Translations under genes and position numbers: made by a program
Source: Hyphomicrobiales bacterium
GTDB taxonomy: Bacteria > Pseudomonadota > Alphaproteobacteria > Rhizobiales > Xanthobacteraceae
Assembly: GCA_017305665.1 (NCBI GenBank)
Contig: JAFKKH010000033.1
Span: forward strand, 1 to 61,591
Reading direction: 5' to 3'
Length of the DNA stretch: 61,591 nucleotides
Notes under the pieces: model-generated
The model's database searches: none
What the model was told of the DNA's origin: nothing
The model's input: only the letters and a program-made list of their open reading frames with translations
Shown here: positions 24,645 to 36,230 of the stretch, in pieces
How the letters are laid out: every line of letters begins with the position of its first letter
How positions within the stretch are numbered: the first letter of the stretch is position 1

Positions 24645-25232
24645 TTATCCCGTCGCGCGGGGCAGGTTGCCTTTCGCGGCGATCTCCGCGGACATCTGTT
24701 CGATCGTCTTTCGCTGCTCCATGGCGGCGCGCCGGATCAAGGCGAAGGCCGCCGGTTCAGCGACGGCATGCGAATGCATCACCTGAAGGACAGCGGCGAG
24801 CACGATACGGCGCGAGCGAAGGCGCTCCTCGAGCTTGACAATTTGTTGCTTTAGCTCGTTGGTTCGCTCGCTTCGTTCAAAGGCCATGACCAGCGCCGCG
24901 TAGATGCCGGCGGAACGCAGCGGCTTGACCAGGAACGATGCCGGGTCGAGTTCGAATACGAGCTTCAATCGGCTCGGTGTTTCTGTGCCCAATAGCGCAA
25001 TGACGGATCCTGCTCCGGAAAGAGTGCGCCGCATTGTCGGATTGAGCGGCAGGAATTCGTCGTCGATTAGAATAACGTCCGCGTGGCGTCCCGATGCGTG
25101 GTCGAAGCCTCCGTTCCAGATATCGATGCCGAGACGTTCGAATTGCCGCCTGACGATCGACAGGTCGCGCTCGTCTTTGATGGCAACGAGAGCCTTGCGG
25201 CCGCGGAGGGAAAATGAAGACGGTTTGCTCAT
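24645..25232 (-). CDS. amiR: ANTAR-domain antitermination regulator AmiR
   Basis: A 195-residue response-regulator-like protein: an N-terminal pseudo-receiver domain, a coiled-coil linker (about residues 118-135) and a C-terminal three-helix ANTAR domain (RRIVLAAVLQVMHSHAVAEP, then AFALIRRAAMEQRKTIEQMS). AmiR of Pseudomonas binds the leader RNA of the amidase operon and prevents termination unless held by AmiC. Its ATG overlaps the amiC stop (25229-25232). The probable target is the terminator at 26660-26700 before the divergent amidase gene. Confidence 0.9.
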   Translation of the reverse strand: MSKPSSFSLRGRKALVAIKDERDLSIVRRQFERLGIDIWNGGFDHASGRHADVILIDDEFLPLNPTMRRTLSGAGSVIALLGTETPSRLKLVFELDPASFLVKPLRSAGIYAALVMAFERSERTNELKQQIVKLEERLRSRRIVLAAVLQVMHSHAVAEPAAFALIRRAAMEQRKTIEQMSAEIAAKGNLPRATG

Positions 25233-26395
25233 TTCACGATCCGCAAGTGAGTCGCATTCGGCGACGATCTGTCCCGCGAAGGATGGGCGGCGACGTCAAG
25301 TTGCGACAGGTAAGGGTCCGGCTTAACCGGCGCGTCGGCTTCCCAGAAGATGTCAAACTGTCCCTGCGCGGTCGAAACCGCCAGCCGCGGCGTAAGGACG
25401 CAATGATTGTTGTCGCCGTCGATCCACACCGGTCCTTGCGGCGAATCGTAGCGATAACCTGCTGCGGCGCGGCGCACTTCGCCGATGTCGGCCGTGCCCG
25501 CCCGCTGAATCGCACGCGCCAGGAGGTGGACCGCGACGTAGGCCGACTGCCCGTCAACAGACGGACAGCTGGTCTCACCATGAGATGCCTTCCAGCGATC
25601 GACGAAAGCGCGGTTCTCCGGAAGGTGGATGCTTTCGAAGTAAGCTGACGACGTGATGCATCCGGCGGAAGCCGGTCCGACGATCTTGAGTTCGGGTTCG
25701 CAGAGGCTGCAACTCAGCATCGGAATCGCGAGGCCGGCGGACGTGGTGGCGGCATGAAAGGCACGGATGAAATCGTAGCTGGAGCTGCCGACGAGCGTGT
25801 TGAAGACCACCGGCGGCTTGCGGCGGACGATTTCATCGACGATGTGTTCCACCGCGCTTTCGCCGAGTTCGAGCAGTCGCTCCGCCAGCACGCTGCCCTG
25901 CGCGGCAGTCACCAGTTCGCGCGTGACGCGATTGGTTTCCCAGGTCCAGACATAATTGGAGCCGACGCAAAAGATGTGGCGCGAGATGTTGTCGAGCACA
26001 TAGCGCACCAGCGGCAGCACGTTGTGATTGGGCGAGGCGCCGACATAAATGACGTTGTCAGAGCATTCGAATCCCTCGTAGCGCGCGGGGTACCACAGCA
26101 GGCGATCGGTGCGCTCGACGATCGGAAGAACCTGCTTGCGCGACGCCGACGTATAGCAGCCGATGATATGCGCTGCGCCGGCGTTGCGGATGAGATCGTC
26201 GCAGACCGTGTGATATTCCGCGATGACGCCGTGCGGGTCGCGGACGTGGGCGGCGATCCTGAAATCGAAATCGGCGCTGTCGTTGATTTCGGAAACCGCC
26301 ATCAGCGCAGCTTTAAGGATTTCTCGCCCCATCGCCTGATAGGGACCGGATTGTGAGCACACAATGCCAACAGGAATGGATGGCTTCGTCATCAA
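25229..26395 (-). CDS. amiC: AmiC-type cytoplasmic amide sensor
   Basis: A 388-residue periplasmic-binding-protein fold of the urea/amide receptor family, but without a signal peptide: the mature fold begins at once with PVGIVCSQSGPYQAMGREIL. Further markers are NVIYVGASPNHNVLPLVRY and SNYVWTWETNR. In Pseudomonas, AmiC holds AmiR inactive until a short amide binds. Coupling to amiR by an ATGA overlap supports the same sensor/antiterminator pair here. It is divergent from the amidase operon. Confidence 0.9.
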   Translation of the reverse strand: MMTKPSIPVGIVCSQSGPYQAMGREILKAALMAVSEINDSADFDFRIAAHVRDPHGVIAEYHTVCDDLIRNAGAAHIIGCYTSASRKQVLPIVERTDRLLWYPARYEGFECSDNVIYVGASPNHNVLPLVRYVLDNISRHIFCVGSNYVWTWETNRVTRELVTAAQGSVLAERLLELGESAVEHIVDEIVRRKPPVVFNTLVGSSSYDFIRAFHAATTSAGLAIPMLSCSLCEPELKIVGPASAGCITSSAYFESIHLPENRAFVDRWKASHGETSCPSVDGQSAYVAVHLLARAIQRAGTADIGEVRRAAAGYRYDSPQGPVWIDGDNNHCVLTPRLAVSTAQGQFDIFWEADAPVKPDPYLSQLDVAAHPSRDRSSPNATHLRIVK

Positions 26396-26777
26396 ATGCT
26401 TTCTGCGGAGCTGCGAGCCGGGATCAGACCATCATGACCGGTGGATGCGCAAGCGTCTTGCTTATTTGTAGTGCAGCGCACTCGCTAAATTTGTGCAGCC
26501 TTCCTCGTTGACATTGCGCTGGCCGCGAACCTAGAATTTCATTGTTAGGGTTTGCTGTCGAACCTGGCTTGCTTCGATCTGGCCGATGACGTCCCGATCT
26601 TTGCATCACGTGCCGTTCGAACCTGGACCCGTAAGATAGATCATAGTTGCGGCATTGGAGCCATTCGTCACCTCACTCGAGAGGTGCGGGTGGCTTTTTT
26701 CGTTTGTCGCTGGAGAACCCTTGGCGAGGTGCGCGCTTCGTCAAAACGATGATGCATGCGCGCGCGGAGAAAAAGCG
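26396..26777 (+). promoter_or_regulatory. amiC/amidase intergenic region with ANTAR-type attenuator leader
   Basis: This gene-free stretch separates the divergent amiC and amidase genes. Its right half is the amidase leader. A hairpin GGC-ATTGGA-GCC (26651-26662) has a six-base loop with A at position 1 and G at position 4, the ANTAR-binding signature, and its 3' arm is the base of the terminator that follows. A weaker candidate first hairpin has loop ATAGAT (26636-26641) but an A/A mismatch in its stem. TCGAACCTGG occurs twice (26558-26567, 26617-26626). I could not fix the promoter. Confidence 0.7.
26660..26700 (+). terminator. Intrinsic terminator in the amidase leader (attenuator)
   Basis: GCCATTCG then a bulged T then CACCTC pairs with GAGGTG and CGGGTGGC: 14 pairs including two G-U, with a six-base loop ACTCGA, followed directly by TTTTTT (26695-26700). 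It stands about 80 bases before the amidase ATG, inside its leader, so transcription would stop unless antiterminated. The overlap with the A1/G4 hairpin gives the switch expected for AmiR. Confidence 0.88.
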
Positions 26778-28178
26778 ATGGCAGCTACCGATCTTCATTA
26801 TCTCGGTCTGGTCGAAATCGGACAGCAGATTCATGCGAAGAAGCTGTCGTCGGTTGAAGTGACGAAAGCGATGATCGAGCGGATCGGGCGGCTCGACGGC
26901 AAGCTTAAGAGCTACGCCTACATCATGGCGGACTCGGCGCTTGCGGAAGCCGCGTCCGCCGAAAAGGAAATCGTTTCCGGCAAGATCAGGGGGCCGCTTC
27001 ACGGCGTGCCCGTCGCCGTCAAGGATCTGTGCTGGGCCAAGGGTGCGCCGGCCGCACACGGCATGACCATTCACAGCGATTACCGGCCCAGCGAGGATGC
27101 TACCGTCGTTGCGCGCCTGAAGAATGCCGGTGCGGTTATCCTCGGCAAGCTGCAGCAGACCGAAGGCGCCTATGCCGATCATCATCCGAAAATTGATCCG
27201 CCGAAGAACCCGTGGGGCGCGGAGCTGTGGCCCGGCGCGTCGTCGAGCGGTTCGGGTGTCGCGACCGCAGCGGGTCTTTGTTTCGGATCGCTCGGCACCG
27301 ATACCGGCGGGTCGATCCGGTTTCCGTCGGCGGCCAATGGCATCACCGGACTGAAGCCAACTTGGGGACGGGTCAGCCGCTACGGCGCTTACGAACTCGC
27401 AGCGACGCTCGATCACATCGGGCCGATGACGCGCAGCGCCGTCGATTGCGGTGCCATGCTCGGCGTGATCGCGGGGCAGGATGCAAAGGATACGACCGCG
27501 GTGACGTTGCCGGTGCCCGACTATCTCGCCGGTCTATCCGGCGATTTGCGGGGCATTACTATCGGTATCGACCGGCGATGGACTGGCGAAGGCACAGATG
27601 AAGCTGCCCGCAAGGTTCTCGGCGAAGGTCTGCGGGCCGCGACTGATCTCGGCGCGAAAATTCAGGAGATCAAATTTCCGGATCCAAAGGCTGTGATCGA
27701 CGACTGGTTTCCATTGTGCGGCATCGAGGCGGCCGTCGCCCACGAGCAGACCTATCCGGCGCGGAAGGCCGAGTACGGGCCGGGTCTTGCCGGCTTGCTC
27801 GATCTTGGCCGACAGCAATCTGGCACCGACTACCAGAAGATCGTTTTGCGGCGCGAAGCGTTTCGCGGTGCGGTGCGAATGCTGTTCGAGTCAGTCGATC
27901 TGATCGCGGTGCCGGCGCAGCCCTACGCGGCGCCGACGCTGGCGAAGCTTGCCTCGCTCGGCGAGGACGCGTCGCTGATTACAGGCCTGCTCCGCTTCAC
28001 CTGTCCGTTCGATATGAGCGGAAGTCCGACGATCACGCTGCCTGGTGGCTTTGCCGCGAACGGCGGTCCGCTCGCGTTCCAGTTTGTCGGACGTCACTTC
28101 GAGGAGGCGGGTCTGGTCCGGGCAGGCGATGCGTTCCAGCGCGTGACCGACTGGCACAAGCGTCATCCCGCTCTCTGA
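26778..28178 (+). CDS. Amidase-signature family amidase, first copy
   Basis: A 466-residue amidase of the amidase-signature (AS) family. The Ser-cisSer-Lys triad is visible: lysine in VPVAVKDLCW, serine in GASSSGSGVA and serine in GTDTGGSIRFP. These enzymes hydrolyse a carboxamide to acid and ammonia. The ATG at 26778 is chosen because GGAGA lies 8 bases before it and because longer in-frame starts would lie before the leader terminator. The next gene, an FmdA-type formamidase, follows after 18 bases. Pseudomonas uses a nitrilase-fold AmiE at this place; here an AS-family enzyme is under apparent AmiR control. A close paralogue is at 34833. Confidence 0.92.
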   Translation: MAATDLHYLGLVEIGQQIHAKKLSSVEVTKAMIERIGRLDGKLKSYAYIMADSALAEAASAEKEIVSGKIRGPLHGVPVAVKDLCWAKGAPAAHGMTIHSDYRPSEDATVVARLKNAGAVILGKLQQTEGAYADHHPKIDPPKNPWGAELWPGASSSGSGVATAAGLCFGSLGTDTGGSIRFPSAANGITGLKPTWGRVSRYGAYELAATLDHIGPMTRSAVDCGAMLGVIAGQDAKDTTAVTLPVPDYLAGLSGDLRGITIGIDRRWTGEGTDEAARKVLGEGLRAATDLGAKIQEIKFPDPKAVIDDWFPLCGIEAAVAHEQTYPARKAEYGPGLAGLLDLGRQQSGTDYQKIVLRREAFRGAVRMLFESVDLIAVPAQPYAAPTLAKLASLGEDASLITGLLRFTCPFDMSGSPTITLPGGFAANGGPLAFQFVGRHFEEAGLVRAGDAFQRVTDWHKRHPAL

Positions 28179-28196: not shown

Positions 28197-29195
28197 ATGG
28201 CTGCGGAAGATTGGTTGTCGAATTCCATCATGTCGAAGCGTGCGCTCGCCAAGGGAAAGGCGGGGACGACGCACAGCCTGACCATCGGCGAGCAGGGGGG
28301 CTTTTACTACGTGTATGGCCCCTATGCGAAACCAACGCTGTCGATCGATCCGGGTAGCATCGTGGTCGTCGAAACCGAAGACGCGTTCGGCGGCGTACTC
28401 ACCAAGGAAAGCGACAGCCCGACGGCGAAGCTGAACTTTCCGTATCTCAATCCGCAAAGCGGACCGATCGCGGTCAAGGGCGCCAAGAAAGGTGATTGCC
28501 TTGCCGTCTATATTCGCGACGTAGAAACACGCGGCGAGCAGCCGGCCGGAACGACCTGCATCATTCCGGAATTTGGCGGACTGGTTGGGACCAGTTCCAC
28601 GGCGCTGCTCAATCCACCGCTGCCCGAGCGCGTCAAGAAGCTGCACGTCGACCGCGACGGCGTGCGCTGGAGCGACAAGATCACGCTGCCTTATGAACCG
28701 TTCATTGGCACGATCGGCGTATCGCCCGAGATCGAGGCGATCTCCTCTCTGCAGCCGGACTATCACGGTGGCAACATGGACCTGCCGGATGTCGCGCCGG
28801 GCGCCATTATCTACTTCCCCGTCCACACCGACGGCGGATTGCTCTACGTCGGCGATTGCCACGCCACCCAAGGCGATGGCGAACTGTCGGGCGTCGCGCT
28901 CGAGCAGCGCGCGACGGTGACGCTCCAGATCGATCTCATCAAAGGCTGGAGCTTTGCGTGGCCACGGCTCGAGACTCGCGACTTTATTATGACGATCGGA
29001 AGCGCGCGCCCGCTCGAGGACGCGGCTCGCATCGCCTATCGCGAACTCACGCGATGGATGAGTGCAGACTACGGCTTTGACGAGATCGACGCATACATGC
29101 TGTTGAGCCAGGCAGGACGCATGCGGCTCGGCAACATGGTCGATCCGAAATACACGATGGGTGCGTCGATCCTGAAAAAATACCTCAAGGCGTGA
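28197..29195 (+). CDS. fmdA: Formamidase/acetamidase (FmdA/AmdA family)
   Basis: A 332-residue enzyme of the acetamidase/formamidase family, which hydrolyses short aliphatic amides to ammonium and the acid. Markers are DPGSIVVVETEDAFGG, GPIAVKGAKKGDCLAVYI, EPFIGTIGVSPE and the glycine/histidine-rich YHGGNMDLPD and GGLLYVGDCHATQGDGE. Length and order of motifs are normal, with no signal peptide. AAGGAG precedes the ATG at 28197; a second ATG at 28230 is possible. It sits between an amidase and the receptor of an amide-type ABC importer, so the locus imports amides and releases ammonia. Confidence 0.9.
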   Translation: MAAEDWLSNSIMSKRALAKGKAGTTHSLTIGEQGGFYYVYGPYAKPTLSIDPGSIVVVETEDAFGGVLTKESDSPTAKLNFPYLNPQSGPIAVKGAKKGDCLAVYIRDVETRGEQPAGTTCIIPEFGGLVGTSSTALLNPPLPERVKKLHVDRDGVRWSDKITLPYEPFIGTIGVSPEIEAISSLQPDYHGGNMDLPDVAPGAIIYFPVHTDGGLLYVGDCHATQGDGELSGVALEQRATVTLQIDLIKGWSFAWPRLETRDFIMTIGSARPLEDAARIAYRELTRWMSADYGFDEIDAYMLLSQAGRMRLGNMVDPKYTMGASILKKYLKA

Positions 29196-29227
29196 ACTTC
29201 ACTGGCTTTCAAACAGGGGATATTGCG

Positions 29228-30466
29228 ATGGAATCAAGACATCTGCTCAGAATTGCGTTTCTTGGCCTCATGCTCGGCGCGGCGGGGTTCAGCACGGCTC
29301 AGGCGGCCGATCCTTCGCTCAAAGTCGGTCTGCTCGAGGATGTTTCGGGCGACCTCGCGTTCATGGGCATGCCGAAGCTCCACGGTTCGCAACTTGCGGT
29401 CGAGGAGATCAACAAGAGCGGCGGCATCCTAGGACGCCAGGTCGAACTCATCCATCTCGATCCGCAGGGCGACAATGCGCGCTATCAGGAATTCGCTCGG
29501 CGTCTGCTCAACCGCGACAAGGTCGATGTGCTAATTGGCGGTATCACGTCCGCATCGCGCGAAGCCCTCCGTCCGATCGTGGATCGCACCAGCACGCCGT
29601 ACTTCTACACCAACCAATACGAAGGAGGTGTCTGCGACGCAAATATGATCAGTACGGGTGCTGTCCCTGAACAACAGTTCTCGACGCTGATCCCCTGGAT
29701 GGTCGAGAAGTTCGGTAAGAAGGTTTACGTGGTCGCCGCAGACTACAATTTTGGCCACATTTCAGCTGAGTGGAATCGGAAGATTCTGAAAGGACTGGGT
29801 GGCGAAGTTGTCGGCGAGGAATTCATCCCGCTCGGCGTCTCGCAGTTCGCACAAACTATCCAGAATATTCAAAAGGCCAAACCGGATTGGCTTTTGATGC
29901 TGAACGTTGGCGCGGCTCAGGATTCGTTTTTCGAACAGGCCGCCGCGGCAAAGCTCAATCTGCCGATGGGATCATCCATCAAGATCATGCTGGGATTCGA
30001 GCATAAGCGTTTCAAGCCGCCGGCACTGAACAATATGCACGCCACTGCGAACTGGTTCGAGGAAATCGACACGCCGGAAGCCAATGCCTTCAAGAAGCGC
30101 TGGCATGCCAAGTTCCCGAATGAAATGTACATCAATGACATGGGCTACAACGCATATCATGCGATCTACATGTACAAGATGCTGGTCGAGAAAGCGAAGT
30201 CGACCAAGCTTGCAGACCTTCGTAAGGTGATTGCGACGGGCGATGCGTGTATCGATGCAGCAGAGGGTCGAATCTGCATTGATCCGAAAAGCCAGCATAC
30301 GTCGCATCGTATGCGCCTGATCTCCGTGGGGCCGCAGCATCAGGTGACGGTCGAAAAAGATTACGGAGTGATCCAGCCTTATTGGCTGGGCCAGATCGGC
30401 TGCGATCTCACCAAGAGCAATCCAAAGGATCAGTACACACCAAATCATCTCCCAAAGAAATCGTGA
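29228..30466 (+). CDS. Urea/short-chain amide ABC transporter receptor
   Basis: A 412-residue periplasmic receptor related to UrtA/FmdD and to AmiC. It has a signal peptide (MESRHLLRIAFLG to TAQAAD) and the fold begins LKVGLLEDVSGDLAFMG. Segments such as YFYTNQYEGGVCDANMISTG and YVVAADYNFGHISAEWNR parallel the AmiC pattern, so sensor and transporter may bind the same ligand class. GGGG precedes the ATG at 29228. A large hairpin follows the gene before the permeases, consistent with higher receptor expression. Confidence 0.88.
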   Translation: MESRHLLRIAFLGLMLGAAGFSTAQAADPSLKVGLLEDVSGDLAFMGMPKLHGSQLAVEEINKSGGILGRQVELIHLDPQGDNARYQEFARRLLNRDKVDVLIGGITSASREALRPIVDRTSTPYFYTNQYEGGVCDANMISTGAVPEQQFSTLIPWMVEKFGKKVYVVAADYNFGHISAEWNRKILKGLGGEVVGEEFIPLGVSQFAQTIQNIQKAKPDWLLMLNVGAAQDSFFEQAAAAKLNLPMGSSIKIMLGFEHKRFKPPALNNMHATANWFEEIDTPEANAFKKRWHAKFPNEMYINDMGYNAYHAIYMYKMLVEKAKSTKLADLRKVIATGDACIDAAEGRICIDPKSQHTSHRMRLISVGPQHQVTVEKDYGVIQPYWLGQIGCDLTKSNPKDQYTPNHLPKKS

Positions 30467-30475
30467 TGTATTGCG

Positions 30476-30513
30476 GCATGAGTCTTGCTCGGGCAATCGG
30501 GCAAGACTCATGC
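30476..30513 (+). other. Intercistronic 13-bp hairpin after the receptor gene
   Basis: GCATGAGTCTTGC (30476-30488) pairs perfectly with GCAAGACTCATGC (30501-30513) across a 12-base loop. No T-run follows, so it is probably not a terminator. Such hairpins after receptor genes protect the upstream mRNA from 3' exonucleases and let the receptor outnumber the permeases. Confidence 0.7.
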
Positions 30514-30566
30514 ACTGATGGTGGTCGCGGAGCTGCATAGTGCGCCGCGTGCGGAAAGGGACAAGG

Positions 30567-31436
30567 ATGTCGGCGGCCGATCTATTCTCGTTCTTCTATC
30601 AGTTCGCCGACGTGTTCGCCTTTTTGATTTTGTCGGCGTCCGGATTGGCCATCGTGTTCGGCATGATGGGCATCATCAACATGGCGCACGGTGAATTTAT
30701 CATGTGCGGCGCCTATGTCACCGTGGGATTGGTGAATCTTGGCGTGCCTCTTGCTCTCGCGCAGATATTGGCGGCGATTGCGGCCGGGCTGATCGGGGTC
30801 GTTGTTGAGTATTTCATCGTGCGTCGTTTCTATAAACGTCCGCTAGATTCGCTTCTTGCCACCTGGGGGCTGAGCTTGATTGTTACGCAGTCGATGCTGT
30901 TGATCGTCGGGTCATCGATACGGGGAATCGGAACTCCGGAAGGCAGCTTTGCGGTTGGCGACTATACATTCTCGACCTATCGCCTTGTCCTGTTCGCCTG
31001 CGCGGTCGCAGTTCTGGTCGGCCTCTACATCATTTTCATGAAAACGCGCTTCGGTGTGTTGGCCCGTGCAACGATGCAGAACGCAGCGATGGCGAAGGCT
31101 CTGGGCGCAAGAACGGGACGTATCTATGCCATCAGCTTCGGAATCGGTGCTGGCCTCGCAGGACTTTGCGGTGCGCTCTATGCACCGACGATGACGTTGA
31201 TTCCGACGATGGGGGCGACCTTCATTGTTGAGAGTTTTGTCACTGTTGTGGTTGGCGGTGCCAACGTGCTGCTTGGAACGGCGCCCGCGGCGATCTTCCT
31301 GGCCATGATCAGAATGGCGCTAAATGCAAGCTATGGTCAGATCATTGGTCAAATCGGTATGTTGTTCGCGGTCATCATGATTATTCGTATTCTGCCTGAG
31401 GGGCTGTCCAGCGTGCTCGTCCGGCGCGGGCGTTGA
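30567..31436 (+). CDS. Branched-chain/urea-type ABC permease (LivH/UrtB-like)
   Basis: A 289-residue inner-membrane permease with about eight hydrophobic segments. The LivH signature is clear: LSASGLAIVFGMMGIINMAH, followed by GEF. The C-terminal FIVESFVTVVVGGANVLLGT is also typical. The ATG at 30567 follows GGAAAGGGACAAGG; a GTG at 30540 would add nine residues. It forms a heterodimer with the next permease in the five-part importer encoded by 29228-33941. Confidence 0.92.
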   Translation: MSAADLFSFFYQFADVFAFLILSASGLAIVFGMMGIINMAHGEFIMCGAYVTVGLVNLGVPLALAQILAAIAAGLIGVVVEYFIVRRFYKRPLDSLLATWGLSLIVTQSMLLIVGSSIRGIGTPEGSFAVGDYTFSTYRLVLFACAVAVLVGLYIIFMKTRFGVLARATMQNAAMAKALGARTGRIYAISFGIGAGLAGLCGALYAPTMTLIPTMGATFIVESFVTVVVGGANVLLGTAPAAIFLAMIRMALNASYGQIIGQIGMLFAVIMIIRILPEGLSSVLVRRGR

Positions 31437-31448
31437 GCGGGGAACGTG

Positions 31449-32516
31449 ATGTTGAGATTGCTTGATGGCCCGCAGACCTTGGGAAAGGGACCAAAGTTCT
31501 GGGCCTGCTTCCTGGTCGTCCTCGTGGCTGCACTGATATATCCGCTGTTTGCCGATTCCTACGATGTCGGCAACTTTGCCTATTTCTTGCTTTGGATATT
31601 CATGGCGCTCGGGCTGAGTCTGATGTGGGGTTATGCCGGCATGTTGTCGTTCGGCCAAACCCTCTTTTTTGGCATTTCCGGCTACACTTACGGTGTGCTC
31701 GCAATCGTGATGGGCGGCGGCTCAACCACGATTGTGGCGCTTGTGCTGTCGGTGTGCATGGCGATGCTGGCGGCGGCGATCCTGGGTTACTTCATGATCT
31801 GGGGTGGAATCAGCGGAATTTTCTTTGGCATTGTAACGTTATCGGCGACCTTGGTGCTCGCTTTCTTTCTCGGGCAGACGGCCGGGTCGGAGTGGCACAT
31901 CGGGGCTGCACGCTTGAACGGCTTCAATGGCATGCAGGGCATGGATCCGCTTACTGTCGGAAGCCTCGATATCGAAGGTTCAGTGCTCTACTATTTCATG
32001 CTCGTGCTGATCGTGGTGGTCTATGTCGCGTTGCGCATGTTCGTGAATTCGAGCATCGGCAACGTCATCGTTGCCACGCGTGAGAATCCGCAACGAGCCG
32101 AGATGCTCGGCTACGACGTCCGCAAGTACCAGCTTCTGGCCTTTGTGATCGGCAGCGGGCTCGCGGGGCTCAGCGGAGCCCTCTACACGTCGTGGGGGCA
32201 GTTTATTACGCCATCCAGTATTGGGCTGCCGGCGGCCGCGATGCCGATCGTGTGGGTCGCTTTCTCCGGCCGGAGTGATCTGACCGCGACGCTGGTTGGT
32301 TCGTTCCTGTTACTGTTCGGCTTCCAGACTATCACGATCTACAGCCAGCAGGCCGCGCTGGTGTTGATGGGAGCGCTGCTGCTGGCGACGGTGATGGTCG
32401 CTCCGCAGGGATTCGTACTCGGCGTCGGACGTCTTATAGCCGTGCGCTGGAAGAGGTGGCGTGGCGGCGGAGTTGCGAAGACGGAGCCAGCCCGCCTTCA
32501 ACCTGACGAGGTCTGA
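31449..32516 (+). CDS. Branched-chain/urea-type ABC permease (LivM/UrtC-like)
   Basis: A 355-residue permease. The LivM-type motif LGLSLMWGYAGMLSFGQTLF is present, and the cytoplasmic loop carries RENPQRAEMLGYDVRKYQLL, which contacts the ATPases. About nine hydrophobic segments fit the family. It starts 12 bases after the LivH-like gene (ATG at 31449 with GCGGGGA upstream; a GTG lies just before). It is part of the amide-type importer of this operon. Confidence 0.92.
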   Translation: MLRLLDGPQTLGKGPKFWACFLVVLVAALIYPLFADSYDVGNFAYFLLWIFMALGLSLMWGYAGMLSFGQTLFFGISGYTYGVLAIVMGGGSTTIVALVLSVCMAMLAAAILGYFMIWGGISGIFFGIVTLSATLVLAFFLGQTAGSEWHIGAARLNGFNGMQGMDPLTVGSLDIEGSVLYYFMLVLIVVVYVALRMFVNSSIGNVIVATRENPQRAEMLGYDVRKYQLLAFVIGSGLAGLSGALYTSWGQFITPSSIGLPAAAMPIVWVAFSGRSDLTATLVGSFLLLFGFQTITIYSQQAALVLMGALLLATVMVAPQGFVLGVGRLIAVRWKRWRGGGVAKTEPARLQPDEV

Positions 32517-32518
32517 TC

Positions 32519-33241
32519 ATGACGCTTGTCGAGGTTAAAGGTGTATCGAAGCGCTTCGGCGGATTGACTGCGGTCTCAGGCGTCGACTTGACGGTCGATG
32601 CCGGCGAGGTTCATTGCCTGATCGGGCCGAATGGAGCTGGCAAGAGCACGCTTTTCAAACTGATCGTAGGACTCTATCCGCCGACACAGGGGCAGATATT
32701 GTTCGACTCCGTCGATATCACGCAGCAGCGCCCGTTTGCGCGCGTGCAGCGTGGCATGAGTATCAAGATGCAGGCGCCGAGTGTTTTCAGGGAGTTGCCG
32801 GTTCGCCAGAACATTCAGATCGCGCTTCAGGGGCACGTTTCGGGTGCGGAACGCGATCGCGAGGAGGAGCGGCTGCTCACGCTCCTCAATCTGGCGACCG
32901 AGGGGGAGAAACTCGCGGGGGCACTCTCGCATGGCCAGCAGCAATGGCTCGAGATCGGCATGGCGCTGGCTCTGCGGCCGCAACTGCTATTGCTTGATGA
33001 GCCGACTGCGGGGATGTCGCCAGAAGAAACGTTCAGGACCGGCGAACTCATCAAGACGTTTAACACCGGCGGTATGACGCTGCTGGTCGTCGAGCATGAC
33101 ATGGCGTTTGTGCGCCAGATCGCCCAGCGCGTCACAGTTTTGCATCTTGGCAAGATTTTTGCGCACGGCAGCCTGGAAGCCATTCTGCAGGACGAGAAGG
33201 TTGCCGAAATCTATCTTGGTAAGACACATGTCCACCACTGA
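32519..33241 (+). CDS. ABC transporter ATP-binding protein (LivG/UrtD-like)
   Basis: A 240-residue ATPase with Walker A GPNGAGKST (residues 36-44), a signature-like ALSHGQQQWLEIGMALALRP (HGQQQ replacing SGGQ, as in UrtD proteins), Walker B LLLLDEPTAGMSP and switch histidine VVEHDM. The SHGQQ variant is the hallmark that separates urea-type transporters from amino-acid LivG, so it supports urea or amide as cargo. It starts two bases after the permease stop and overlaps the next ATPase gene by 14 bases. Confidence 0.92.
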   Translation: MTLVEVKGVSKRFGGLTAVSGVDLTVDAGEVHCLIGPNGAGKSTLFKLIVGLYPPTQGQILFDSVDITQQRPFARVQRGMSIKMQAPSVFRELPVRQNIQIALQGHVSGAERDREEERLLTLLNLATEGEKLAGALSHGQQQWLEIGMALALRPQLLLLDEPTAGMSPEETFRTGELIKTFNTGGMTLLVVEHDMAFVRQIAQRVTVLHLGKIFAHGSLEAILQDEKVAEIYLGKTHVHH

Positions 33242-33941
33242 TCGAATTCTGGACGTCTCTGAGCTTTGGGCAGGTTATGTCGCCACGCCTATCCTTCAGG
33301 GTGTAAGCATGTCGGTGTCCCGCGGCGAGATCGTCGGCGTGATCGGGCGCAACGGAGTCGGCAAGTCGACACTGATGCGATGTCTGATCGGGCTTCTCGA
33401 TTCCTGGCAGGGGTCGATCACCTTTCTCGGCCGGGATGTGACCCGGCTGGAGGCCGATGCCCGGGCGCGCGCTGGATTCGGCTACATTCCGCAGGGACGA
33501 GATGTTTTCCCGCAGATGAGCGTCGAAGAGAATTTGCAAGTCGGCCAGCTGATAGGCGGGCCAAGCGGCAAGAAGTTTCCCGAACTCGTCTACGAGTATT
33601 TCCCGCGACTAAAAGAACGCCGCCGGCAGATGGCGGGAACCATGTCTGGCGGCGAGCAACAGCAACTTGCGATCGGGCGTGCACTCATCGGAAACCCCGC
33701 GTTGATGATCCTCGACGAGCCGTCCGAGGGGGTTCAGCCGTCGATCGTGCAGCAGATTTGCGAGGCGATGAAGTCGTTCCGGAACGAGCTTGGAACGACG
33801 ATTATATTCGTCGAGCAGAATCTCGACACGATTCTGGCGATCGCCGAGCGCTGCTACATCATGGAGAAAGGCAAGATTACGCGGTCGCTGACCGGCGATG
33901 ACGTCAACGCCGACAATGTTCGCGCCCAACTCCTGTTGTGA
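33228..33941 (+). CDS. ABC transporter ATP-binding protein (LivF/UrtE-like)
   Basis: A 237-residue ATPase with Walker A GRNGVGKST (residues 40-48), the conserved GFGYIPQGRDVFPQMSVEEN typical of UrtE, signature MSGGEQQQLAIGRALIGNP, Walker B LMILDEPSEGVQPS and VEQN at the switch position. PQGR and EGVQPS are usual for urea-type LivF proteins. The ATG at 33228 lies inside the end of the preceding gene. It completes the receptor, two-permease and two-ATPase importer. Confidence 0.92.
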   Translation: MSTTDRILDVSELWAGYVATPILQGVSMSVSRGEIVGVIGRNGVGKSTLMRCLIGLLDSWQGSITFLGRDVTRLEADARARAGFGYIPQGRDVFPQMSVEENLQVGQLIGGPSGKKFPELVYEYFPRLKERRRQMAGTMSGGEQQQLAIGRALIGNPALMILDEPSEGVQPSIVQQICEAMKSFRNELGTTIIFVEQNLDTILAIAERCYIMEKGKITRSLTGDDVNADNVRAQLLL

Positions 33942-34014: not shown

Positions 34015-34776
34015 ATGGATTTGGGACTCAAGGGAGCCAGAGTACTCGTCACCGGCAGCACCAGGGGAATCGGCAGGGCGATCGCTGAGACGTTCGCGAC
34101 TGAAGGCGCCAACGTCGGAGTTTGCGCGCGCAACCAGGCGGACGTGGACAAGACGGTGGCTGCCCTCAAGACGAAGGGCGTATCGGCCTTCGGCGGTCCG
34201 GTCGATGTCTCCGATGGTCCGGTCCTCAAGGCGTGGGTGAACGAGATGGCCTCAAAGCTCGGCGGGGTCGATGTCGTCGTCGCCAACGTGAGCGCGCTTT
34301 CAATCGGGCAGGATGACGAGAGCTGGCAGAAGGAGTTTTCCACAGACATGATGGGAACGGTGCGCCTGGTCGGCGCGGCCATGTCGTATCTCGAAAAAAG
34401 TTCGGCGGCTGCCATTGTAACGATTTCCAGTGTCTCCGGCCGGGAGGTCGACTTCGCGAGCGGCCCTTACGGTACGTTCAAGGCGGCGATCATCCATTAC
34501 ACCCAGGGCCTTGCGTACCAGCTCGCTGGCAAGGGAATCCGCGCCAACTCCGTGTCGCCCGGCAATACCTATTTTGAAGGTGGAGTCTGGAATACGATTA
34601 AGGACAGCAACCCCGAGCTCTACAAGACCGCGCTGGCCCTCAATCCAACCGGCCGCATGGGGACGCCACAGGAGATGGCAAACGCTGCGGTATTCCTCGC
34701 GAGCCGGGCGGCCAGCTTCATCACGGGAACGAATCTCGTCGTGGATGGCGCCTTGACGCGCGGCGTTCAGTTCTAG
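34015..34776 (+). CDS. SDR-family oxidoreductase
   Basis: A 253-residue short-chain dehydrogenase: TGSTRGIGRAIAETFATEG for NAD(P) binding, VVANVS where most relatives have NNAG, SSVSG, and the catalytic YGTFK. The C terminus ITGTNLVVDGALTRGVQF is family-typical. GGGAGG precedes the ATG. It lies 73 bases after the ATPase gene with a small hairpin (33954-33976) between them, and is followed by the second amidase. A role in modifying the amide-derived acid or alcohol is an inference from position. Confidence 0.9.
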   Translation: MDLGLKGARVLVTGSTRGIGRAIAETFATEGANVGVCARNQADVDKTVAALKTKGVSAFGGPVDVSDGPVLKAWVNEMASKLGGVDVVVANVSALSIGQDDESWQKEFSTDMMGTVRLVGAAMSYLEKSSAAAIVTISSVSGREVDFASGPYGTFKAAIIHYTQGLAYQLAGKGIRANSVSPGNTYFEGGVWNTIKDSNPELYKTALALNPTGRMGTPQEMANAAVFLASRAASFITGTNLVVDGALTRGVQF

Positions 34777-34832
34777 TCGCGCAAGCCCGCGACGTAGTCA
34801 ATCCGGACAAGAATGGGGGAGCAGACCTGACC

Positions 34833-36230
34833 ATGGATCAGTTGCACTACACATCAATCATCGAACTTTCGGAGCTATTCCGTCGCAAGGCGTTGTTGCC
34901 CTCGGAAGTTGCCGAAGCATCGCTGAAGCGGATCGATCAGCTCGACACGAAATTTCACGGTTATGCCGTCGTGCTGGCAGAGCGTGCCATGGCGCAGGCA
35001 AAGAAGGCCGACGGCGAGATCGCGAAGGGAATCCGGCGCGGCCCGTTGCACGGCATTCCGATCGGGCTGAAAGATCTTTGCTATACGACGTTCGCGCCGT
35101 CTGCAGGTGGTACTAAAATCCACGCGACATTCGTGCCGCCATTCAATGCGACCGTCGTGGACCGGCTCGAACTGGCGGGTGCGGTGACGCTCGGCAAGCT
35201 CAAGATGACTGAGGGCGCCTATACCAGCCACCATCCCGACGATCAGGCACCGCTCAATCCGTGGAATGCGGACTATTGGGTCGGGTCGTCATCCAGCGGC
35301 TCGGGCGTCGCGACCTCAGCGGGGCTTTGCTACGGCTCGATCGGCACCGATACCGGCGGTTCAATCAGGTTTCCGTCCGCGACCTGCGGTCTAACCGGCA
35401 TCAAGCCGACGTGGGGCCGGGTCAGCAGGTATGGCGTCTTCCCGTTGGCGGACTCGCTCGATCATGTCGGACCGATGTGTCGGAGCGCCGCGGATGCTGC
35501 GGCGATGCTCGGCGTGATCGCGGGCGCCGACCCGAACGATCTGACCGCCTTGCAAGCCCCCGTGCCGAACTATCTCACCGGGATTGGCAATGGTGTGCGG
35601 GGCCTGCGCATCGGCGTGGATCGCGCATATACCCAGGACGGCATCGATCCGCAGGTGGTGAAAGCCTTGCTGGAGGCTGAACGTGCGCTCGCGTCGCTTG
35701 GGGCGGACATCCGCGAAGTGCGCTTTCCCGCTTATGAGAAGCTGGTCAGTCAATGGATTCCGATGTGCTCGGTCGAGACGGCCGAAGCGCACCAGAAAAC
35801 GTATCCGTCGCGGAAGAACGAGTATGGACTGGACCTTGCACAACTGATCGACCAGGGCCATGGCCTTAGCGGTGTCGAGATCGCGGCCATCCACCACGAG
35901 CGGCTCAAGTTCAGCGGTAGCCTTGTCGCATTGTTTCGGGATATCGATCTGCTGCTGATCCCGACGATGCCGGTGCCGATTCCGACGCTGACGAAGATGG
36001 GCGAATACGGCGCCGATCCAAATGTTTTGCTGAGTATCTTGCGCTTCACGGCGGTGTTCGATTTCAGCGGCAGCCCCACGATCACGCTGCCGATGGGAAT
36101 GGCGTCCGATCAGATGCCGCTCAGCATGCAGCTGGTCGGGCCTCATCTATCGGAAGATGTTCTTGCGCGAGCTGGACACGCGTTCCAGTCGGTGACCGAC
36201 TGGCACACGCGGAGGCCTCCGATTGGGTGA
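34833..36230 (+). CDS. Amidase-signature family amidase, second copy
   Basis: A 465-residue AS-family amidase, collinear with the protein encoded at 26778. The triad residues are in IPIGLKDLCY, GSSSSGSGVA and GTDTGGSIRFP. The two copies share long identical blocks such as PTWGRVSRYG and GTDTGGSIRFPSA, yet differ enough to be an old duplication or separate acquisition with different amide preference. A 6-bp hairpin GTCGCG/CGCGAC (34776-34793) lies in the 56-base gap before it, and GGGGGAG precedes the ATG. It is the last gene of unit C. Confidence 0.92.
   Translation: MDQLHYTSIIELSELFRRKALLPSEVAEASLKRIDQLDTKFHGYAVVLAERAMAQAKKADGEIAKGIRRGPLHGIPIGLKDLCYTTFAPSAGGTKIHATFVPPFNATVVDRLELAGAVTLGKLKMTEGAYTSHHPDDQAPLNPWNADYWVGSSSSGSGVATSAGLCYGSIGTDTGGSIRFPSATCGLTGIKPTWGRVSRYGVFPLADSLDHVGPMCRSAADAAAMLGVIAGADPNDLTALQAPVPNYLTGIGNGVRGLRIGVDRAYTQDGIDPQVVKALLEAERALASLGADIREVRFPAYEKLVSQWIPMCSVETAEAHQKTYPSRKNEYGLDLAQLIDQGHGLSGVEIAAIHHERLKFSGSLVALFRDIDLLLIPTMPVPIPTLTKMGEYGADPNVLLSILRFTAVFDFSGSPTITLPMGMASDQMPLSMQLVGPHLSEDVLARAGHAFQSVTDWHTRRPPIG

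What the first reader, a model, noticed from the sequence alone, without database searches (positions are those of the whole stretch)
26632..26700. ANTAR-type attenuator in front of an amidase-signature gene
The leader has a 14-pair terminator hairpin with T6, and its 5' base (GCC, 26660-26662) is also the 3' arm of a small hairpin whose six-base loop ATTGGA has A1 and G4, the bases recognised by ANTAR proteins. amiC-amiR are divergent next door. The first hairpin of the usual pair is weak (loop ATAGAT, A/A mismatch). AmiR control is known for the nitrilase-type amiE; here the controlled genes are an AS amidase, FmdA and a whole ABC importer.
Basis: partly seen in the sequence, partly recalled or inferred. 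Interest (0 to 1): 0.72.

Follow-up and report, generated by a model that had tools for sequence, protein, structure and literature searches.

The report
Amide-operon RNA switch with unusual leader
In front of a soil bacterium's amide-using genes lies an RNA off-switch that a neighbouring regulator protein probably opens; the principle is known, but the RNA departs from the usual recognition rule and carries an extra folded section that matched no RNA family we searched.

Summary
The sequence features are real: promoter 26508-26537, ANTAR-like hairpin P2 (GGC-AUUGGA-GCC, 26651-26662) whose 3' arm is the base of a terminator with T6 (26695-26700), divergent amiC-amiR, and a downstream amidase/FmdA/Urt-type importer operon. 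An ANTAR-type attenuator opened by AmiR is the best reading: the window plus 65 related loci keep promoter, P2 stem, terminator and amiC-amiR, even where the downstream amidase differs (14 of 17 sister-clade loci). Corrections: (1) P2's A1 is conserved, its G4 is not: 2 of 49 leaders in the window's clade (48 of 49 have G5), against 16 of 17 in the sister clade. (3) The first ~90 nt fold into a long hairpin; its tip (apex GCCGAYGACGUC) is strongly supported by compensatory changes, and no match in Rfam was found. So: a new variant of a known kind. It works like an ANTAR attenuator but does not meet the dual-hairpin definition. AmiR binding, amide induction and the role of the 5' domain are inferred.

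The parts
26508..26537 (+). sigma-70-type promoter TTGACA-18-TAGAAT of the leader
   Evidence: 11 of 12 consensus positions; the only promoter-like site found in 26380-26800; TTGAC at the expected distance upstream of P2 in all 66 clade-1/2 leaders but L094
26548..26630 (+). 5' domain: long imperfect hairpin; outer helix 26548-26554/26624-26630, middle helix TCGAAC 26558-26563 / GTTCGA 26615-26620
   Evidence: single-sequence MFE folds; middle helix 97.8% of cells paired in clade 1 but without compensatory changes there; other complementary arms in some clade-2 leaders, from an uncontrolled best-helix search
26571..26604 (+). P0, tip of the 5' domain; apex GGCCGATGACGTCC (26581-26594) with C26583.U26592 mismatch and AUGA tetraloop 26586-26589
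   Evidence: RNAalifold; the count of structure pairs: covariation 0.555 against 0.250 shuffled (0 of 500) and 0.08-0.13 slid; exact GCCGAYGACGTC in 48 of 49 clade-1 and 11 of 17 clade-2 leaders
   Evidence: clade 1: loop A1 47 of 49, G4 49 of 49, closing G-C 47 of 49, next pair non-standard 49 of 49; clade 2: no standard closing pair, no G4 in 17 of 17
26642..26649 (+).
   Evidence: AUAG at that distance in 49 of 49 clade-1 leaders and within one base in 12 of 17 clade-2 leaders; C-G closing 49 of 49 in clade 1, next pair never standard
26651..26662 (+). P2 hairpin GGC-AUUGGA-GCC (A1, G4, G5), the antiterminator candidate
   Evidence: stem invariant in 37 of 37 aligned leaders
26658..26700 (+). 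intrinsic terminator overlapping the P2 3' arm, T6 26695-26700
   Evidence: 8 basal pairs standard in 37 of 37 aligned leaders
24645..25232 (-). amiR: AmiR_N pseudo-receiver plus ANTAR domain
25229..26392 (-). amiC: amide-sensor homologue, no signal peptide apparent by eye
26778..28178 (+). amidase-signature enzyme
   Evidence: PF01425 325 bits
28197..29195 (+). FmdA/AmdA-type acetamidase/formamidase homologue
   Evidence: PF03069; below the NCBIfam FmdA cut-off
29192..33941 (+). Urt-type ABC importer: substrate-binding protein, two permeases, two ATPases
   Evidence: substrate-binding protein over the TIGR03669 cut-off, the other four below the Urt cut-offs
34015..36230 (+). SDR gene and second amidase-signature gene, probably still in the operon
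   Evidence: ORFs; PF01425 for the second amidase; the SDR name was read by eye and not run against a family library

Best explanation
A protein-controlled transcription attenuator. Transcription starts just downstream of TAGAAT (26532-26537). The nascent RNA folds a long 5' hairpin domain, then a short segment with one or two A1/G4-type loop motifs (AUAGAU/AUAG), then P2, then a strong terminator that shares the GCC arm of P2. By default the terminator (-25.4 kcal/mol) beats P2 (-2.8 kcal/mol) and transcription stops near 26700. When AmiC binds an amide it releases AmiR; the ANTAR dimer grips the first loop and P2, holds GCC in P2 and lets polymerase read into the amidase/FmdA/importer operon. 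The 5' domain most likely helps AmiR loading, making up for the poor P1 stem. Shown here: anatomy, conservation, P0 base pairing, linkage to amiC-amiR. Inferred: start site, default termination, AmiR binding, amide as signal, role of the 5' domain.
For: The AmiC search kept its best 80 of 84 relatives = 77 loci; 75 have a placed amiC start; 65 of these carry this leader (48 in the window's clade, 17 in a sister clade), 5 another P2/terminator leader, and in 5 none was recognised. In 14 of 17 sister-clade loci the first matching gene behind the leader is an amidase only 30-36% identical to the window's, yet leader and amiC-amiR stay: the leader goes with AmiR. amiR was read at 64 of the 65 loci (L068 not readable). 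The P2 5' arm and A1 are conserved. P0 covariation. The own genome has two ANTAR genes and one strong match to the P2/terminator model. Energies. AmiR keeps residues aligned with EutV R142, E160, R168, M172, R175 and has F for Y164 (numbering).
Against: No Rfam family matches. The P2 loop lacks G4 in 47 of 49 clade-1 leaders, and AmiR has V for EutV Lys149 and T for Arg177, both RNA contacts. No uninterrupted P1 stem: neither P1 candidate has a standard second pair in any of 49 clade-1 leaders, although deleting P1 ablated induction in the EutV system (PMC3369931). The window's 5' domain alone folds only slightly better than shuffles (z -1.18; 18 of 37 leaders below -2). No expression data.
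Confidence: 0.78

Rival explanations
1. The same attenuator, but the 5' domain is not an AmiR site: it is an insulator/stability element, a pausing element, or the target of a second regulator (for example nitrogen status).
Against: In the own genome and in 35 selected loci it was convincingly seen only with this amiC-amiR subfamily. No second regulator was looked for.
Confidence: 0.4
2. The 157-nt RNA is an independent trans-acting small RNA with its own terminator, and the amidase gene has another promoter.
For: Promoter, structured RNA and strong terminator form a complete small transcription unit.
Against: No second promoter-like site was found up to 26800 and conservation between terminator and start codon is poor; P2/terminator overlap beside amiC-amiR is the mark of ANTAR control; in 65 of 65 loci the nearest match among the eight window proteins searched is an amidase.
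Confidence: 0.1
3. A plain constitutive terminator between divergent genes; P2 is a chance match.
For: P2 with A1/G4 by chance has a probability of about 0.02; G4 is not conserved in the clade.
Against: The P2 5' arm is invariant in 37 of 37 aligned leaders and A1/U2 in 49 of 49 of the clade, outside the 14-pair terminator stem.
Confidence: 0.05
4. The 5' domain block is coding (leader peptide ..ADDV..) or a DNA operator rather than RNA structure.
For: GCC GAY GAC GUC reads as codons with a third-base change; the arms form an inverted repeat.
Against: In the 8 leaders translated there is no in-frame ATG before the block within the leader as cut, and a stop follows it directly in 3 of the 4 sister-clade leaders shown (not L085); compensatory changes, a C.U mismatch and tetraloop-closing covariation suit RNA.
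Confidence: 0.05

Closest known systems
ANTAR target RNAs with dual hexaloop hairpins (E. faecalis eut, K. oxytoca nasF, P. aeruginosa amiE leaders; PMC3369931, PMC8934654, PMC7496416)
   Same: Small 3-bp hexaloop hairpin P2 with a C:G closing pair and A1, overlapping the base of an intrinsic terminator, next to an ANTAR gene; an A1/G4 loop motif 5-8 nt upstream of it in the window's clade; nitrogen-related operon
   Different: No uninterrupted P1 stem; P2 G4 mostly replaced by G5 in this clade; an additional ~90-nt structured 5' domain
P. aeruginosa AmiC-AmiR / amiE system (structures 1PEA, 1QO0)
   Same: AmiC-like sensor and AmiR-like pseudo-receiver/ANTAR protein
   Different: Regulator genes divergent from the target operon; target is an AS amidase, FmdA and a Urt-type importer rather than a nitrilase-type amidase (the amiE type and its operon order are recalled); AmiR ANTAR lacks the Lys149 equivalent that the P. 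aeruginosa protein keeps (alignment)
NasS-NasT leaders of Bradyrhizobium (PMC6759348, passages only)
   Same: ANTAR antitermination of nitrogen genes in the same group of bacteria
   Different: Other sensor, other genes; leader sequences not compared here

Membership tests
Canonical dual-hairpin ANTAR target RNA | P2: stem of at least 3 bp with a hexanucleotide loop | tested here: met
   GGC/GCC invariant in 37 of 37 aligned leaders
Canonical dual-hairpin ANTAR target RNA | P2 loop A1 | tested here: met
   49 of 49 in clade 1, 15 of 17 in clade 2
Canonical dual-hairpin ANTAR target RNA | P2 loop G4 | tested here: not met
   present in the window itself, but in 2 of 49 of its clade; 16 of 17 in the sister clade
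Canonical dual-hairpin ANTAR target RNA | P1 loop with A1 and G4 | tested here: inconclusive
Canonical dual-hairpin ANTAR target RNA | P1 stem of at least 3 bp | tested here: not met
   second pair non-standard in 49 of 49 clade-1 leaders for both P1 candidates; no conserved uninterrupted stem of 3 or more pairs specific to P1 in both clades
Canonical dual-hairpin ANTAR target RNA | Intrinsic terminator overlapping P2 | tested here: met
Canonical dual-hairpin ANTAR target RNA | Linker of 5-12 nt between P1 and P2 (eut RNAs) | tested here: inconclusive
Canonical dual-hairpin ANTAR target RNA | Binding and antitermination by an ANTAR protein | not testable with these tools
   needs AmiR binding and a reporter
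AmiC/AmiR regulatory pair | Peripla_BP_5 sensor plus AmiR_N-ANTAR protein encoded together | tested here: met
   genes overlap by 4 nt
AmiC/AmiR regulatory pair | Target operon begins with a nitrilase-type aliphatic amidase (amiE; recalled) | tested here: not met
   PF01425 amidase-signature gene
Any Rfam 15 family | Match at the gathering score | tested here: not met
   only a tRNA in the window; in the leader stretch 3 matches far below gathering scores, best E 0.04

The most novel reading that the evidence does not exclude
In this AmiR lineage recognition has moved about the leader: the window's clade keeps A1/G4 in the first loop and has slid P2 from guanine 4 to guanine 5, while the sister clade keeps A1/G4 in P2 and has lost G4 and the closing pair of that first loop; the P1 stem is reduced and a ~90-nt folded domain with apex GCC-GAYGAC-GUC has become a docking site for AmiR. 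The window (AUUGGA, both guanines) and L041 (G4 only) branch near the base of their clade and look like intermediates, so ANTAR RNA recognition would be far more plastic than the two-hairpin A1/G4 rule.
Probability: 0.3. Interest if true: 0.66.

Novelty: new variant of a known kind. Interest (0 to 1): 0.5.

Why it matters
Published ANTAR searches look for two A1/G4 hexaloop hairpins with proper stems. Sixty-six leaders that keep the terminator trick without a proper P1 stem, 47 of them also without P2 G4, suggest that such searches miss candidates, and they offer natural variants (G4, G4+G5, G5) on one scaffold to test how ANTAR domains read RNA. The structured 5' domain is a covariation-supported RNA element without a match in Rfam.

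Tried and rejected
G4/G5 code in AmiR: the residue aligned with EutV Asn173 is E in 47 of 49 rows of clade 1 (one Q, one unread) and R or Q in 17 of 17 of clade 2. It looked like protein-RNA co-change, but a tree of 42 AmiR proteins has only 4 changes of G4 and 3-4 independent pairs, without significance, and L154 (E with G4), L096 (Q with G5), L133 and L138 (A with G5) break it. Rejected as unproven. Nine rows of that tree come from loci picked by eye out of the scan (fetched from 385 and 398 genomes); L116 and L136 (other loops) and L126 and L127 (near-copies of L124) were not used in it.

Coding leader peptide: rejected. Regulon: R2 has one strong hit in the own genome (7.8e-14; next 0.2). 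R1 has the window (2.2e-9) and then 5.4e-4 and 0.035; L159 and L160 look like coding sequence by eye, so I take them as chance, untested. P0 in more distant AmiC/AmiR loci: nothing better than E 1.3. A model of the 5' domain trained on clade 1 alone (R3) gave 12 matches at E up to 1: 10 at the right place, in 10 of 17 clade-2 loci (only 2 below 0.01), and 2 off target: moderate support. Alternative P1 stems: no uninterrupted one in both clades; that scan asks for consecutive pairs and would miss stems with mismatches. In constrained folds of other AmiR-linked leaders a hairpin stands 2-13 nt before P2 in, for example, L100, L102, L107-L109, L119, L121, L124 and L129; A1/G4 hexaloops can be drawn by eye in L121, L156 and L157 but were not the predicted folds. 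Long-range pairing GCCG (P0 apex) with CGGC (P2 5' arm) is nearly universal but may follow from two conserved elements; left open.

Rows left out: L111 and L112 (no amiC start); of 65 distinct clade-1/2 leaders 38 were kept at under 93% identity and 37 aligned (L094 left out by me); A6 used 30 of the 37; each searched 35 selected sources.

Full report
WHAT IS THERE. The intergenic region between divergent amiC (25229-26392, -) and an amidase-signature gene (26778-28178, +) holds one promoter-like site, TTGACA-18-TAGAAT (26508-26537), and a leader of about 157 nt that ends in a terminator with T6 (26695-26700). Energies favour the terminator (-25.4 against -2.8 kcal/mol), so the default should be off. 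amiR encodes AmiR_N plus ANTAR and amiC a Peripla_BP_5 protein related to 1PEA. Downstream lie FmdA, a Urt-type importer, an SDR and a second AS amidase (the SDR name is by eye).

IS IT CONSERVED. A search with an AmiC alignment kept the best 80 of 84 relatives, 77 distinct loci, nearly all Bradyrhizobium, Rhodopseudomonas and other alphaproteobacteria. In 75 the amiC start could be placed. 65 carry a recognisable ortholog of this leader: 48 in the window's clade (AmiC 82-89%) and 17 in a sister clade (AmiC 65-71%). 5 more distant loci have a different P2/terminator leader, and in 5 none was recognised by the pattern used. In 14 of the 17 sister-clade loci the first matching gene behind the leader is an amidase with only 30-36% identity, while leader and amiC-amiR persist. 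Thus the leader belongs with AmiR rather than with the enzyme.

P2: A1 YES, G4 NO. Counting the window there are 49 clade-1 leaders. Their P2 loop has A1 in 49, U2 in 49, position 4 U 36/A 6/C 5/G 2, and G5 in 48. The 17 clade-2 loops have A1 in 15 and G4 in 16. The window (AUUGGA) has both guanines; L041 (AUUGAA) has only G4. In the AmiR tree these two branch near the base of clade 1, with modest support of 82-83, so the window may show an intermediate. In EutV, G4 is flipped out and held by Arg142, Lys149, Glu160 and Tyr164 (PMC8934654, sections 20-22 read). By alignment (numbering shifted by two so that it matches the residues named in the paper) the window's AmiR keeps R, E and an aromatic F but has V for Lys149 and T for Arg177. 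A link between the Asn173 equivalent and loop type was tested and not supported.

P1: A LOOP WITHOUT A GOOD STEM. Canonical ANTAR RNAs need a first hairpin: in the EutV system deletion of P1 ablated induction (PMC3369931, section 7 read). So the loop and a mismatch-bearing stem are conserved, without compensatory change. In clade 2 the same place has no standard closing pair and no G4 in 17 of 17. An overlapping reading is C[AUAGNN]G, AUAG ending 4 nt before the P2 stem: AUAG in 49 of 49 of clade 1 and, within one base, 12 of 17 of clade 2; its C-G closing pair stands in 49 of 49 but the next pair never, and in clade 2 the closing pair is mostly non-standard. NasR SELEX preferred a terminal C:G pair with A1/G4 (PMC7496416, passages). 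The two readings share C26642 and exclude each other. Taken together, clade 1 has its strict A1/G4 loop in P1 and clade 2 in P2.

A STRUCTURED 5' DOMAIN. An alignment of 37 leaders (23 + 14 of 65 distinct; selection, L094 left out by me) shows a near-invariant block GCCGAYGACGUC about 40 nt after the inferred start; the exact block is in 48 of 49 clade-1 and 11 of 17 clade-2 leaders. RNAalifold places it at the tip of a hairpin. Counted pairs: 90.7% of cells paired against 73.7% in shuffles (0 of 500); cells with changes on both sides 87 against 31 (0 of 500); covariation 0.555 against 0.250 (0 of 500) and 0.08-0.13 when slid; pairs with changes on both sides 10 of 12 against 7.7, reached in 14 of 500 shuffles. 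Each clade alone is weaker. Clade 2: 6 such pairs against 2.6 (3 of 500), covariation 0.338 against 0.210 (0 of 500). Clade 1: covariation 0.191 against 0.115 (0 of 500), but the number of pairs with changes on both sides (4) is no more than in shuffles (294 of 500). Single-sequence folds extend this into one long imperfect hairpin of about 80-95 nt in most of the 37 leaders by eye. Its middle helix UCGAAC/GUUCGA hardly varies in clade 1; in some clade-2 leaders other complementary pairs stand there, such as ACGAAA/UUUCGU, GCGGAG/CUUCGC and UCGGGA/UCCCGA, found by a best-of-many search without a control. Against: per-leader folding z-scores average -2.26, only 18 of 37 fall below -2, and the window has -1.18. 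A clade-1 model found 10 of 17 clade-2 sites at E up to 1, only 2 of them below 0.01, with 2 off-target hits. Rfam has no match. The block does not look coding in the 8 leaders checked.

HOW IT PROBABLY WORKS. Default termination; amide binding to AmiC frees AmiR; AmiR stabilises P1/P2 and so blocks the terminator; the operon is read. The 5' domain may present or pre-load AmiR; alternatives are insulation or a second regulator. Each functional step is inference from anatomy and from the AmiR, EutV and NasR literature.

WHAT IS KNOWN. The principle is known, and ANTAR RNAs upstream of urea transporters and other nitrogen genes were predicted in 2012 (PMC3369931, section 10 read). Actinobacterial ANTAR RNAs were curated with linkers of 2-25 nt, and the known family is described with A1/G4 loops (PMC8164766, abstract and passages). 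Paper searches showed no title or abstract start on this leader or its 5' domain; the listings seen were 20 of 27, 11 of 11, 25 of 65, 25 of 653, 12 of 130 and 10 of 37. Most subscription papers and all preprints are outside that library, and the 2012 supplementary tables were not seen, so this leader may be listed there. I rate it a new variant of a known kind: it works like an ANTAR attenuator but is not filed as a canonical dual-hairpin ANTAR RNA, since the P1 stem and conservation of P2 G4 were tested and not met.

Noticed in passing
L001 / L129 (own genome C20, about 243300-246450): A second ANTAR gene with amiC-like genes on both sides. Its downstream leader has a canonical P2 (GGC-AACGAA-GCC, A1/G4) overlapping a strong terminator, preceded by two more strong hexaloop-sized hairpins; this ANTAR domain keeps Lys149 and Tyr164.
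   Followed up: partly
L077-L084, L089-L092, L101, L110: In these 14 sister-clade loci the first matching gene behind the conserved leader is an amidase only 30-36% identical to the window's, while FmdA is 82-84% identical in L080, L082, L089, L090, L091, L101 and L110 (in L081 only pieces of 48-63%): enzyme replacement under a kept RNA switch.
   Followed up: partly
L094 (Bradyrhizobium barranii subsp. apii 1S5): amiC is split by an insertion of about 1.4 kb; leader and operon remain.
   Followed up: no
L058: A contig labelled as a Bryobacterales MAG carries a Bradyrhizobium-like copy of this locus (AmiC 85%); probably a misbinned contig.
   Followed up: no
L092 11959-19536 and L102 11847-20466: A second amiC-amiR/importer/FmdA set, all on one strand, lies beside the divergent one.
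   Followed up: no
window 26582-26585 and 26650-26653: GCCG in the P0 apex and CGGC at the P2 5' arm are complementary in nearly all aligned leaders; a possible third, mutually exclusive fold.
   Followed up: no
L097, L104: AmiR of these loci has Q at the position of Met172 of EutV, which sits in the RNA loop, and no P2/terminator leader was recognised there.
   Followed up: no
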